Shown here one piece after another: positions 46,676 to 56,328 of a stretch of DNA of 64,000 bases. The notes under the pieces are model-generated. The model did no database searches. It was not told the origin of the DNA and worked only from the letters and a program-made list of their open reading frames with translations. The stretch is from positions 12,253 to 76,252 of the forward strand of contig JAGVAB010000075.1 in NCBI GenBank assembly GCA_020060485.1, written 5' to 3'. The position numbers and the translations under genes were made by a program. Each line of letters begins with the position of its first letter. The stretch's first letter is position 1. Source of the stretch: Anaerolineales bacterium (GTDB lineage: Bacteria > Chloroflexota > Anaerolineae > Anaerolineales > Anaerolineaceae).

Positions 46676-46701
46676 GATTCGTTCTGTGCAAGGAGAGTAC
46701 G

Positions 46702-47163
46702 ATGAAGAAAATAGTATTTTCCGGACTGCTGCTTTTACTGCTGGCAGGATGCGCCGGATTGGTAAATAACCAGCCGACAGGCCTCAATGTGATTGTCTAT
46801 CAATTCCCTACCTGAGGATGCTGCAGCGATTGGATCGATTACCTTGAGGATAATGGGTTTGCGGTGGAGAAGATCGATACCGATGATCTTGCTTCGATCA
46901 AAGCCCAATACCAGGTTCCCCCTGCGTTCCAGTCTTGCCATACAGCCATCGTAGATGGCTACGTGATTGAAGGACATGTGCCTGCTGCAGAAATTGAACG
47001 CTTGCTGACTGAAAGACCCGATGTGATCGGCATTGCTGTTGCAGGTATGCCTGCCGGGTCTCCCGGGATGGAAGTGGAAGGGCTTGAGACAGAAGCCTAT
47101 GATGTGGTTATATTTTCCAAATTCGGTGCTACTGCTATTTATGCTTCTTACCCTAAAGAGTGA
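46702..47163 (+). CDS. CopG/DUF411-family lipoprotein, predicted selenoprotein (UGA at codon 38)
   Basis: 153 residues if the in-frame TGA at 46813-46815 is read as selenocysteine. Residues 1-17 are a lipoprotein signal (MKKIVFSG..LLAGC, lipobox Cys17); AGGAGAG precedes the ATG. The reading frame then continues without any other stop to 47163. The rest matches DUF411, the family of the periplasmic copper-resistance protein CopG, along its length: U38-G39-C40-C41-S-D-W (family motif CxCC), VPPAFQSC79-H80-TAIVDGYVIEGH92VPAAEI, and GIAVAGMPAGSPGMEVEG. Sec thus replaces exactly the first Cys of the CxCC copper/redox motif. A hairpin follows the UGA (see SECIS entry). The next gene, 47 bases on, is a multicopper oxidase. 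Alternatives are a nonsense mutation of TGC/TGT or a sequencing error. Confidence 0.78.
46832..46860 (+). promoter_or_regulatory. Candidate bacterial SECIS hairpin
   Basis: Upper stem AUUACC (46838-46843) pairs with GG-UAAU (46848-46854) with a bulged A at 46850, around apical loop UUGA (46844-46847). A weaker lower stem GGAUC/GGUUU continues across a G-G mismatch. The loop G lies 31 bases after the UGA, within the usual distance for bacterial SECIS elements. The structure is modest and was folded by eye. Confidence 0.45.
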
Positions 47164-47210: not shown

Positions 47211-48752
47211 ATGCTCATGAATGAGAGGAAACTATCACGCCGCAAATTTTTGCAAATCATGGGCATGGGCGGGGCTGCGCTGTGGGTGAGTTCCTGCCTG
47301 CCCAAAGGGTTGGCTGATTCCATGTTCAGCCAGGATGCAGCAGCGCCCTCGTTCGAGCCGGATGTGGAGATATCCTTGACCGCAGCACCGGGAGAGGTGA
47401 ATATCTTTCCGGATTCTAAAACCAGCGTTTGGCGTTATAAGGGCGAGGTGCTGCGTGGCTCCGCGGATGTCCTGGAGAGTATTCCTGGTAGCTATCTGGG
47501 GCCTACACTGCATTTGCAAAAGGGCCAGCGCGTGCGGGTGCATTTCAAAAATGAGCTTCCCGAACCGTCCATTATTCACTGGCATGGGCTGCATGTTCCA
47601 GAGGAGGCGGACGGGCATCCCCGGCTGGCGATTGATTCGGGAGAGACCTATGTGTATGATTTCACGGTGACAGATCGCGCCGGGACGTACTGGTATCATC
47701 CGCATCCGCATGGACGGACTGCGCCGCAGGTCTATGCCGGGCTGGCCGGATTGCTGCTCATTACGGATGATGAAGAGGCGGGTTTGGGTTTACCCTCTGG
47801 AGAGTATGATGTGCCCCTGGTGCTCCAGGATCGTACGTTCAACAGCGTGGATCAACTTTCCTATGGCGGGATGGGCATGATGGGCCAAATGACGGGCTTC
47901 CTTGGCGGCCGGATTTTGGTCAATGGCAGACCGGATCACATTTTGCCAGTGAAAACCCACCCATACCGGCTGCGGTTGTTGAATGGCTCCAATTCACGCA
48001 TCTATAAACTGGCCTGGCAGGATGGCGTTCCTATGGTGGTACTGGGTACGGATGGCGGGCTGCTGGAAAAGCCGGTTGAGCGCAGCTTCATTACCCTGGC
48101 CCCCGCGCAGCGGATTGATTTGTGGGTCGATTTTTCTTCATATGCGATGGGAGAAACCAGACAGATGGTTAGTCTGCCCTTTGCCGCTTTGGGCGGCGAA
48201 GCGGCATATCCGCTTTTTGCTGCACAGATTGAAGAGGTAATTGATCATTCTGTGACCTTGCCAGATCAGTTGTCTCATATAACCTGGCATGTCGCCGAAG
48301 ATGCTGTTAACCGAAAATCTCCGAGATCGTTTCAGTTGGCAATGGGCCGCGGCATGCAGTGGACGTTGAACGGGCGTGTGTTTGACATGCACTCGGTTGC
48401 CAAAGATGAAATTGTAAGACTTGGTGATCTTGAGATTTGGGAGTTTGAGAATCTTGCAGGCAGTGGAATGGGTATGATGGGAGGGATGAACCTGCCGCAC
48501 CCGATGCATGTGCATGGATTGCAGTTTCAAGTTATTGAGAGACAAATATCTTCAGCCGGTCTTGCCGCGTGGCAGACGCTTGGCGAAGGTTTCGTGGATG
48601 AAGGCTGGCATGATACGGTGCTGGTGATGCCGGGGGAGAAGCTGAAGGTGCTGCTGAAATTCGAAGACTTCACCGGTTTGTATCTTTATCATTGCCACAA
48701 TCTGGAGCATGAAGATATGGGCATGATGCGCAATTATCGAGTTGATGCCTGA
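47211..48752 (+). CDS. Tat-exported multicopper oxidase (CueO/CopA-like)
   Basis: 513 residues. Twin-arginine signal [18 protein letters not shown], then three cupredoxin domains. All type 1, 2 and 3 copper ligands are visible: [19 protein letters not shown] and [13 protein letters not shown] (H-C-H-x3-H-x4-M). Met-rich stretches ([17 protein letters not shown]) resemble the copper-binding segments of CueO and related cuprous oxidases. It probably oxidises Cu(I) outside the membrane. It lies 47 bases after the CopG-like gene and is likely co-transcribed, giving a two-gene copper detoxification module. Confidence 0.92.
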
Positions 48753-54988: not shown

Positions 54989-56224
54989 TTAGCCGCTGGC
55001 GGCTGCATGCGGGTTGGCATCTGCCAGCGCACTCGATTTTTCAGTCTCTGCGGTTAGTAAGAGAGGCGCCGCCTTTTGCATGCCAATGGCTCCCAGCGGA
55101 GCCGTGAACAGGATCGCCACCACAGCAATGGCCAGAATGAGCTCCCCGGAGGCGATGCCCAGACTGAGCGGGATGGCGCCGATGGCGGCTTGCACCGTGG
55201 CTTTGGGGGTATAGGCGATCGTACAGAAAAGACGTTCCTTCCAGTTCAAGCCTGCTCCCATGGTGGCGATCAGCACCCCCAGGCTGCGTCCCAGCAAACC
55301 GATCAGGACGATCAGGACGCCCATCAAACCGGCATTCAGCGCCACGCTCACATTGACCTGCGCCCCCACCAGAACGAACAGAAAGACCTCGGCCAGCACC
55401 CAAATTTTGTTGAATTTTTGGGAAAGACGCCGGGCAACCACAGGTTTCTTCTCCAGCAGGATGAAGCCCAGGGTCATCACTCCCAGCAGGGAGGCGATCT
55501 CCACCTTGTCTTTCAACCAGCCTTCGATGGCGGTAAGCAGGATGGCAATACCAAGGATATACAGTACTTTTTTGGTGTCGCGCATGTGGAAGCGGGTGAA
55601 ACTGTAGGCCAATGCCAGCCCGCTGAGCAGGCCAATGACAATCCCCAAAATGATAGAAATGGGAATGCCCAGTATCTGCACGCCAATATTGGCCTGACTG
55701 CCGCTATACAGGCCCAAAAAGGTAGTGAAGATGGTGATGGCAAAAACATCATCAATGGATGCTCCCGCCAGGATCAGGGTGGGGATGCCTTTGTTGGTGC
55801 CCAGCCTGGTTTCAGAAAGGTGCAGCATTTGCGGCACCACGATGGCCGGCGAAACCGCCGCCAGAATGAAGCCCAGAATACCGCCCTCAATAAAAGAGAA
55901 GCCCAAAAGGCGGGTTGCCAGGAAAGCGATGGTAAAGCCTTCAAACAGTCCGGGGATGCAGCTGAACTTGACAGCCGAAAGTCCCACTTTTTTCAGCTCG
56001 GTTTTGCTGATACCCAGGCCGGCCCGCAAGAGGATCACGATCAGGGCAAATTTGCGTAATTCAGCCGAGATGGCCAGCAAACCCGGTGAAAGCCAGTTGA
56101 GTGCATAAGGTCCAAGAACGATGCCCAGCAGCAGCATGCCCAACAGCCCGGGCAGCTTCATTCGGTTGAAGAGGGCATTGGTAGCCAGACCCAAAATGAG
56201 CATTAATCCAATACTGGTAATCAT
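54989..56224 (-). CDS. Cation/proton antiporter (CPA superfamily), fluoride-riboswitch controlled
   Basis: 411 residues with about 12 membrane segments. KLPGLLGMLLLGIVLGPYAL, LILAGASIDDVFAITIF (Asp pair in a central span, as in the transport site of CPA antiporters) and GLLGRSLGVLIATMGAGLNWKERLFCTIAYTPKATVQAAIGAIPL are typical of the Na+/H+ exchanger fold. The ATG at 56224 follows CTGGAGGCTGCTG. A fluoride riboswitch lies directly upstream, so the gene is expected to be induced by fluoride; antiporters are among the known fluoride-riboswitch regulon genes. Whether it moves F-, Na+ or H+ to counter fluoride toxicity is not decided by sequence. Confidence 0.88.
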   Translation of the reverse strand: MITSIGLMLILGLATNALFNRMKLPGLLGMLLLGIVLGPYALNWLSPGLLAISAELRKFALIVILLRAGLGISKTELKKVGLSAVKFSCIPGLFEGFTIAFLATRLLGFSFIEGGILGFILAAVSPAIVVPQMLHLSETRLGTNKGIPTLILAGASIDDVFAITIFTTFLGLYSGSQANIGVQILGIPISIILGIVIGLLSGLALAYSFTRFHMRDTKKVLYILGIAILLTAIEGWLKDKVEIASLLGVMTLGFILLEKKPVVARRLSQKFNKIWVLAEVFLFVLVGAQVNVSVALNAGLMGVLIVLIGLLGRSLGVLIATMGAGLNWKERLFCTIAYTPKATVQAAIGAIPLSLGIASGELILAIAVVAILFTAPLGAIGMQKAAPLLLTAETEKSSALADANPHAAASG

Positions 56225-56239: not shown

Positions 56240-56312
56240 AATAAAATAACTCCCGCAAAGTATTCTTCGCAGGAGTCATCAGCGTTGCGCGGTTAAGGTG
56301 AACTCCATCACC
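56240..56312 (-). promoter_or_regulatory. Fluoride riboswitch (crcB motif) with intrinsic terminator
   Basis: The minus-strand aptamer spans 56312-56270. P1 pairs GGTGA with TCACC. GGAGT in the P1 loop pairs with ACTCC near the 3' end to form the pseudoknot. TTAAC and the short P3 GCG-CAA-CGC are followed by TGATGACTCCTGC, matching the fluoride aptamer core. The overlapping expression platform ACTCCTGCGAAG/CTTTGCGGGAGT (56277-56250, 12 bp, loop AATA), followed by TATTTTATT, uses the same ACTCC strand. Fluoride binding should therefore prevent termination and switch the antiporter on. Confidence 0.92.
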
Positions 56313-56319
56313 GGGGCGG

Positions 56320-56328
56320 ATTATATCA
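56320..56328 (-). promoter_or_regulatory. Extended -10 promoter of riboswitch transcript
   Basis: TGATATAAT (minus strand), an exact extended -10 (TGnTATAAT). No good -35. The predicted start falls at about 56312, the first G of the aptamer. Confidence 0.75.

What the first reader, a model, noticed from the sequence alone, without database searches (positions are those of the whole stretch)
46702..47163. A selenocysteine-containing CopG (DUF411): UGA replaces the first Cys of the CxCC copper motif
Seen: a lipoprotein signal, 37 codons, an in-frame TGA, then 115 more codons in the same frame with no other stop. The joined protein matches DUF411/CopG from signal to C-terminus. The UGA stands exactly at the first Cys of CxCC, giving U-G-C-C; every other conserved residue (C40, C41, C79, H80, H92, SPGME) is intact. 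Known: Sec usually replaces redox-active Cys, and CopG binds and redox-cycles copper through this motif. Inference: a selenoprotein form of CopG, where Sec would change copper affinity or redox behaviour. I do not recall a described DUF411 selenoprotein. An annotation pipeline would split or discard this gene.
Basis: partly seen in the sequence, partly recalled or inferred. Interest (0 to 1): 0.95.

Follow-up and report, generated by a model that had tools for sequence, protein, structure and literature searches.

The report
Selenium copper protein with looped-out SECIS
This bacterial copper-protein gene has a UGA stop codon exactly where most relatives encode a cysteine of the copper-binding motif, and it most likely inserts selenocysteine there, guided by a predicted RNA hairpin 135 bases downstream that would fold back next to the UGA, much farther away than the 16-37 bases usual for such signals in bacteria.

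Summary
The gene at 46702-47163 is a DUF411/CopG lipoprotein in which UGA (46813-46815) replaces the first Cys of CxCC. I found 40 further genes with TGA at this codon, in Chloroflexota and relatives of a Desulfuromonadales genome; the other homologues read as DNA have TGC/TGT, none TGG. The sequence after the UGA is under purifying selection. Most of the relatives' genomes tested carry selA, selB and selD; 33 of 34 selD-positive ones have a UGA-containing selD. The window's own genome is not held. The searches made found no DUF411 selenoprotein in print.

There is no clear SECIS signal right after the UGA, although selD of the same genomes has a strong one. Instead, nearly all UGA genes share a predicted hairpin with a G-U-N loop 135 nt downstream (window 46944-46960), plus a long-range stem that would fold it back beside the UGA. 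Eight of eight synonymous sites tested in this structure favour pairing in 38 UGA genes, none of eight in 77 Cys genes; stem and hairpin are predicted together in 37 of 38 versus 3 of 77. This looks like a SECIS with a looped-out spacer. Selenium insertion, SelB binding and copper chemistry remain inferred.

The parts
46702..47163 (+). DUF411/CopG gene read through an in-frame UGA (153 residues, predicted Sec at 38)
46690..46695 (+). AAGGAG, likely ribosome-binding site six bases before the ATG
   Evidence: read from the sequence; motif recalled
46741..46752 (+). LAGC, likely lipobox (residues 14-17) of the signal peptide
   Evidence: read from the translation; motif recalled
46813..46815 (+). 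UGA predicted to be decoded as selenocysteine (first position of CxCC)
46823..46837 (+). 5' arm of predicted long-range stem P1 (nt 11-25, U of UGA = 1)
   Evidence: window MFE and centroid; stem in relatives
46925..46938 (+). 3' arm of predicted long-range stem P1 (nt 113-126)
46944..46960 (+). Predicted hairpin P2 AGCCAUC-GUA-GAUGGCU (nt 132-148), proposed SelB-binding hairpin
46951..46953 (+). Apical G-U-N triloop of P2 (GUA here)
47211..48752 (+). Multicopper oxidase gene next downstream, closest to CueO but below that model's cut-off

Best explanation
The gene is predicted to encode a selenoprotein form of the copper protein CopG (DUF411), in which UGA 46813-46815 is likely decoded as selenocysteine with the help of a predicted looped-out SECIS: a G-U-N-capped hairpin (P2) 135 nt downstream that would be brought beside the UGA by a long-range stem (P1). 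Inferred steps: when the ribosome stalls with UGA in its A site it covers the next 6-9 bases; P1 stands just outside the mRNA entry channel and loops out the roughly 90 nt between its arms; P2 emerges at the base of P1, so SelB carrying Sec-tRNA-Sec on the G-U loop sits near the A site, as it would on an ordinary SECIS. The ribosome then inserts Sec and unwinds the domain. The lipoprotein would be exported and would use U38-G-C40-C41, with M116 and M123, to bind and redox-cycle copper. Shown: the UGA, its recurrence, purifying selection, Sec machinery in most relatives tested, and UGA-specific RNA structure by sequence statistics. Not shown: Se insertion, SelB binding, copper binding.
For: TGA at this codon in 41 distinct genes; no TGG. 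Class of G011 (a Desulfuromonadales genome): 11 of the 11 strong hits among 13 matching genomes of 244 carry one TGA. Class of G003 (Chloroflexota): 22 of the 42 hits with E<=1e-34, from 396 genomes. pN<pS in 378 of 378 pairs after the UGA. SelA in 11 of 11 first TGA genomes, one just under the cut-off at a contig edge; SelB over the cut-off in 10 of 11 and 10 of 11, one genome shared; SelD in 34 of 40, UGA-type in 33 of those. RNA: synonymous-shuffle signal at bases 121-156 after the UGA in UGA genes (t -10.9) and not in Cys genes (t 0.3); 8 of 8 tested synonymous sites biased to pairing in 38 UGA genes (p 1.3e-3 to 4.9e-13), 0 of 8 in 77 Cys genes; P1+P2 predicted in 37 of 38 (2.7 expected from synonymous shuffles) and 3 of 77 Cys genes; a UGA gene fetched later also folds it. 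P2 loop G-U invariant in 36 of 36 rows. selD of the same genomes has a GUN-capped hairpin in 19 of 29 read.
Against: The window's genome is not held, so its selA/B/C/D are untested. Machinery does not discriminate: among the 15 Cys-type control genomes SelB passes in 9 and tRNA-Sec exceeds 60 bits in 9, and SelA occurs in 320 of 396 class genomes. The published bacterial SECIS model asks for 16-37 nt from UGA to loop; here it is 135. The structure was derived from the same genes on which the synonymous sites were then tested, and genes were treated as independent. Covariation is modest: 2 double-change cells in P2, 7 in the P1 register, 0 in that; pair 18:120 fails in 12 of 36 rows. With nearly all of the remaining ORF included, both elements are predicted in only 25 of 38 genes. 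The P1 register shifts between genes, and without ribosome cover P2 is predicted in only 15 of 38. P2 is broken in L114. UGA genes of the two groups may share ancestry or transfer. Two TGA genes (L008, L134) have a further in-frame TAA; L134 also has N bases. The neighbouring oxidase was not found next to other TGA genes. In R. capsulatus the Cu motifs of CutG were not needed for CutO activity.
Confidence: 0.82

Rival explanations
1. Sec is inserted at the UGA, but through an ordinary weak hairpin directly after it; the distal structure has another role, such as slowing ribosomes or stabilising the mRNA.
For: Some bacterial SECIS elements are atypical (PMC13188914 and PMC12013277 passages). 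A short hairpin around the W44 codon reaches 5 or 6 of 6 pairs in 7 of 40 UGA genes, the window included, and UGA genes pair there slightly more than Cys genes (3.1 against 2.4 of 6, Mann-Whitney p 0.015). One of seven proximal windows reached z -3.2. In the 11 rows of the class of G011 alone RNAalifold draws a hairpin over bases 1-16 after the UGA (-6.2 kcal/mol).
Against: Proximal signal is near zero against synonymous shuffles while selD in the same genomes reaches z -10; RNAalifold finds nothing proximal in 29 Chloroflexota rows. The distal element carries the GU loop of the SECIS model and is UGA-specific.
Confidence: 0.12
2. The UGA is read as another amino acid (tryptophan or near-cognate suppression), without selenium.
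For: Public protein sets show W here in 15 of the 120 listed hits.
Against: Those W most likely come from gene calling with TGA=W: P0020 matches the TGA gene L003 at 147 of 155 residues, and no locus read as DNA has TGG here. The window gene itself ends with TGA. Homologues have Cys, not Trp, and most tested relatives have Sec machinery.
Confidence: 0.02
3. Pseudogene, nonsense mutation or sequencing error.
For: L008 and L134 have a further in-frame TAA.
Against: Same TGA in 41 genes; dN/dS 0.10-0.23 downstream in the eight printed pairs with dS below 2; no second TGA inside any strong hit.
Confidence: 0.01
4. The distal hairpin acts on codon 79 (UGC), a relic or a second recoding site.
For: P2 lies just after the C79 codon.
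Against: Codon 79 is TGC/TGT in 38 of 38 UGA genes; the spacing from it to the loop is only 12 nt; P1 links the hairpin to the UGA at codon 38; a relic would decay.
Confidence: 0.02

Closest known systems
CopG of Pseudomonas aeruginosa (PDB 6wis/6wje) and CutG of Rhodobacter capsulatus
   Same: Same family and fold, C40-C41 and the M-x6-M pair; CutG is also encoded beside a multicopper oxidase (PMC8456105 and PMC7558416, passages).
   Different: First Cys of CxCC is a UGA codon here; gene order differs.
Bacterial SECIS (bSECIS model, PMC13188914 Fig. 2 legend; E. coli fdhF)
   Same: Small apical loop with G then U, stem of 4-16 bp, energy below -7.5 kcal/mol for P2 of the window.
   Different: 135 nt from UGA to loop instead of 16-37; a predicted long-range stem and a roughly 90-nt looped-out coding domain lie in between.
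SECIS region of UGA-type selD in the same genomes
   Same: In 19 of 29 a GUN-capped hairpin is predicted behind a first hairpin.
   Different: The first hairpin is local (about 15 nt, only 3-4 bp in some) and the GUN loop starts 33 nt after the UGA.
119 prokaryotic selenoprotein families or subfamilies of PMC13188914 Table 1
   Same: Sec at a Cys of a thioredoxin-like fold; several members deal with metals.
   Different: DUF411/CopG is not in the table.

Membership tests
CopG / DUF411 | Pfam PF04214 above the gathering score | tested here: met
   95.3 bits against 27
CopG / DUF411 | CopG fold | tested here: met
   Foldseek best hit 6wis_A, E 1.0e-14, TM 0.74/0.90 (model with Cys for Sec, pLDDT 82.8)
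CopG / DUF411 | CxCC copper motif with three cysteines | tested here: not met
   First Cys is a UGA codon; C40 and C41 present
CopG / DUF411 | Met pair M-x6-M | tested here: met
   M116 and M123; pair named in PMC8456105 passages
CopG / DUF411 | Binds a tetranuclear copper cluster | not testable with these tools
   no experiment
Selenoprotein gene | In-frame UGA aligned with Cys of homologues, in more than one gene | tested here: met
   41 genes
Selenoprotein gene | Sec machinery in the same genome | not testable with these tools
   window genome not held; found in most relatives tested
Selenoprotein gene | Selenium in the protein | not testable with these tools
   no experiment
Bacterial SECIS model | Apical loop 3-9 nt and upper stem 4-16 bp | tested here: met
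   predicted 3-nt loop, 7-bp stem
Bacterial SECIS model | G in the first two loop positions, often followed by G or U | tested here: met
   G-U in 36 of 36 rows
Bacterial SECIS model | 16-37 nt from UGA to apical loop | tested here: not met
   135 nt in the window and the 35 other gap-free rows; 138 in L011 and L125
Bacterial SECIS model | Energy at most -7.5 kcal/mol | tested here: met
   -9.3 for P2 of the window; not computed singly for the others

The most novel reading that the evidence does not exclude
A new class of bacterial SECIS: the SelB-binding GU hairpin lies about 135 nt beyond the UGA and is folded back to the ribosome by a long-range stem that loops out some 90 nt of coding sequence, in a new selenoprotein family, Sec-CopG, shared by Chloroflexota and Desulfuromonadales relatives. 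It is built like the two-hairpin region of selD in the same cells, with the first hairpin expanded into a large domain, so Sec codons can sit far upstream of their signal.
Probability: 0.77. Interest if true: 0.93.

Novelty: new variant of a known kind. Interest (0 to 1): 0.92.

Why it matters
It would add a copper protein to the selenoproteins, with Sec expected to act at a copper site. It would also break the working rule used to find bacterial selenoproteins, that the SECIS lies directly after the UGA. Genes with looped-out signals would be missed by SECIS-based predictors and cut in two by gene callers, as appears to have happened to this one (P0008, P0105). The predicted stem, hairpin and GU loop can be tested by synonymous changes alone.

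Tried and rejected
Proximal SECIS: folding of 55 nt after the UGA, synonymous-codon shuffles and register scans gave no clear signal, apart from the points listed under the first rival; selD served as positive control. Co-occurrence with SelA as proof: not informative (320 of 396 class genomes have it). Operon conservation: tblastn of eight window neighbours found none beside the other TGA genes, apart from one weak ABC ATPase match in L003; many of those loci hold only about 1.5 kb of flank. Neighbours of single TGA genes include a P-type ATPase, a cupredoxin, DsbD_TM, CCP_MauG and YtkA. Viral contigs: Cys forms only and 0 matches to a UGA-plus-element pattern. Phylum-wide draws found no further TGA gene. 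Other UGA genes in the window: extended frames were listed but not scanned. Four further third positions were listed in the script but skipped by it. Dropped before counts: L113, L122, L135, L136 (duplicates), L038 (duplicate of L151, from then on), L008 and L134 (further TAA, N bases; in the counts, left out and from then on, save that L134 stays); folded apart, these two show P1 and P2. L011 and L125 (one more codon) are left out of the 36-row alignment.

Full report
WHAT IS THERE. The gene starts at ATG 46702 behind AAGGAG and runs 37 codons to TGA 46813-46815, then 115 codons to TGA 47161-47163. Joined, it is a DUF411 protein (PF04214, 95.3 bits, cut-off 27) and matches solved CopG by sequence (6wis, E 4.7e-33) and by model (6wis_A first, E 1.0e-14). 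The UGA stands at the first Cys of CxCC. The next gene, 47211-48752, is a multicopper oxidase closest to CueO, below that model's cut-off.

RECURRENCE. Of the 120 listed public protein hits, 102 have CGCC, 15 WGCC, 1 CDCC and 2 are cut after the site. The W appears to be TGA translated as Trp; P0020 (W) is 147 of 155 identical to L003, whose DNA has TGA. The tool names no groups for handles; the class of G003 holds named Anaerolineales and Caldilineales genomes and I take it to be Anaerolineae, and the class of G011 (a Desulfuromonadales genome) to be Desulfuromonadia. In 396 genomes of the first, 53 match and 42 do so at E<=1e-34; 22 of those 42 carry a TGA, at this codon in all 22 when read as DNA. 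In 244 genomes of the second, 13 match, 11 strongly, and all 11 carry TGA at this codon. Phylum-wide draws added none (1 of 297 and 5 of 281 genomes matched). In total 41 distinct TGA genes, the window included.

SELECTION AND DESCENT. After the UGA, pN<pS in 378 of 378 pairs of 28 genes; the eight pairs with dS below 2 among the 14 printed have dN/dS 0.10-0.23. On a 109-row tree, poorly resolved, the Sec label needs 4 changes (25 when shuffled); one origin is not ruled out, and the window pairs with L003, a Chloroflexota genome. The window's host is therefore inferred, not known, to be Chloroflexota.

MACHINERY. The window's genome is not held. In the first 11 TGA genomes SelA hits in 11 of 11 (one at 259 bits, cut-off 267.9, at a contig edge), SelB passes its cut-off in 10 and tRNA-Sec exceeds 60 bits in 8. 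In the 15 Cys-type genomes searched beside them, SelB passes in 9 and tRNA-Sec exceeds 60 bits in 9, so machinery is a precondition and does not discriminate. Of the 22 TGA genomes of the class survey, 20 have SelA at E<=1e-30, against 320 of all 396; G416 lacks it but has SelB, and G339 shows only a SelB fragment at a contig end. SelB passes in 10 of 11 TGA genomes of the class of G011. SelD is found in 34 of 40 TGA genomes, G339 included, and in 33 of the 34 a selD gene or piece carries one UGA, so UGA decoding as Sec is expected there independently of DUF411.

NO CLEAR SIGNAL DIRECTLY AFTER THE UGA. Shuffling synonymous codons gives no excess structure there, whereas selD in the same genomes gives z about -10 with the same test. 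Results that point the other way: one of seven proximal windows reached z -3.2; a six-pair register around the W44 codon pairs slightly better in UGA than in Cys genes (3.1 against 2.4, p 0.015); and in the 11 rows of the class of G011 alone RNAalifold draws a hairpin over bases 1-16.

A DISTAL ELEMENT INSTEAD. A sliding synonymous-shuffle scan shows structure at bases 49-84 and 121-156 after the UGA in 38 UGA genes (t -6.6 and -10.9); 77 Cys genes give t -2.8 and 0.3 there. The second is a hairpin, P2, (A)GCCAUC-GUN-GAUGGC(U). Without constraint, RNAalifold on 36 gap-free rows finds P2 (132-138:142-148, U of UGA = 1) and a long-range stem P1 (13-16:124-127 and 19-22:116-119); I had already noted possible long-range pairing of that kind. 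On alignment A3, 96.5% of 540 cells pair, against 27-50% when slid, but with shuffled partners 96.1% still pair, since many pairs hardly vary. The neighbouring register 16-22:116-122 plus P2 pairs 93.7% of 504 cells, with 9 double-change cells (shuffles 3.9; 2 of 500 as high). P2 itself has two compensated A-U to G-C changes. Eight third-base positions in the structure are biased to pairing codons in the UGA genes (p 1.3e-3 to 4.9e-13) and none in the Cys genes (p 0.29-0.98). This test is post hoc, on the genes that suggested the structure, and treats genes as independent; the Cys genes are its control.

FOLDING TESTS. The window alone folds P1 and P2 in both MFE and centroid (overall z only -1.5); P2 alone has z -5.1 and -9.3 kcal/mol. 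With UGA and six further bases covered, as by a ribosome, P2 exceeds 0.5 probability in 37 of 38 UGA genes, and long-range stem plus P2 is predicted in 37 of 38, against 2.7 for synonymous shuffles and 3 of 77 Cys genes (1.8 for their shuffles). The exception for P2 is L114. Without cover, P2 exceeds 0.5 in 15 of 38, seemingly because bases just after the UGA compete for its 5' arm; that competing pairing was not tested for selection, so a ribosome-triggered switch is only a suggestion. With nearly all of the remaining ORF, both elements are predicted in 25 of 38. In 13 genes the stem uses a shifted register. One UGA gene fetched later (L196) shows both elements; 4 further distinct Cys genes show no P2, though one of them (L191/L197) scores a long-range stem.

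COMPARISON. The published bacterial model asks for a 3-9 nt loop, a 4-16 bp stem, G in the first two loop positions, 16-37 nt from UGA to loop for most elements, and energy at most -7.5; some known elements do not fit it (PMC13188914, passages; same spacing in PMC10778597, passages). P2 of the window meets all but the spacing, which is 135 nt. In E. coli, U17, G23 and U24 are named as the key bases (PMC8659212, passage); P2 has the loop G-U in 36 of 36 rows but no bulge. In selD of the same genomes, 19 of the 29 read (of 33 UGA-type) have a GUN-capped hairpin 33 nt after the UGA behind a first hairpin, which is only 3-4 bp in some. DUF411 thus looks like the same two-part plan with the first part grown from about 15 nt to about 115 nt; this is inference.

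NOVELTY. In the held library 0 papers hold DUF411 with selenocysteine, 0 hold DUF411 with CopG and copper, and COG3019 with seleno gives one listing. Table 1 of PMC13188914, read in full (parts 1 and 2 of its section), covers 119 families or subfamilies without DUF411/CopG. Word searches inside PMC9312934, PMC2398784, PMC12013277 and PMC1088965 found no DUF411 or CopG. Terms for a long-range bacterial SECIS gave one paper, seen as a listing only. Most subscription papers are not in the library, and supplements were not searched.

FUNCTION. P. aeruginosa CopG is described as binding a tetranuclear Cu cluster through CxCC and two Met, with copper oxidoreductase activity; in R. capsulatus loss of CutG halves CutO activity, but mutating CutG's Cu motifs did not significantly affect it (PMC7558416 and PMC8456105, passages). 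The CopG paper itself is not held. Sec at the first ligand would be expected to change copper affinity and redox behaviour; this is inference.

ODDS.

Noticed in passing
56263-56321 (-): Fluoride riboswitch (56.5 bits) directly before a Na+/H+ exchanger gene at 54989-56224 (-).
   Followed up: partly
L161-L190: UGA-type selD of these genomes often has two successive predicted hairpins after the UGA, the second with a GUN triloop 33 nt away (19 of 29).
   Followed up: yes
L119 1600 (counted on the - strand): A Cys-type (TGT) DUF411 gene of the class survey still shows a partly mispaired P2 and some long-range pairing: perhaps a former Sec gene with a fossil element.
   Followed up: no
L008 1073-1400: A TGA-type gene with a further in-frame TAA and Asn where the 3' arm of P2 begins; possibly decaying.
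   Followed up: no
L038/L151: In this Desulfuromonadales gene the motif reads U-S-C-C instead of U-G-C-C.
   Followed up: no
L146 and L147 contigs (G511:C58, G459:C2): Sec-DUF411 lies on the same contig as selB and selD, about 14-43 kb away.
   Followed up: no
UGA genes, bases 49-84 after the UGA: A further structured stretch inside the looped-out domain, in UGA genes (t -6.6) and weak in Cys genes (t -2.8).
   Followed up: no
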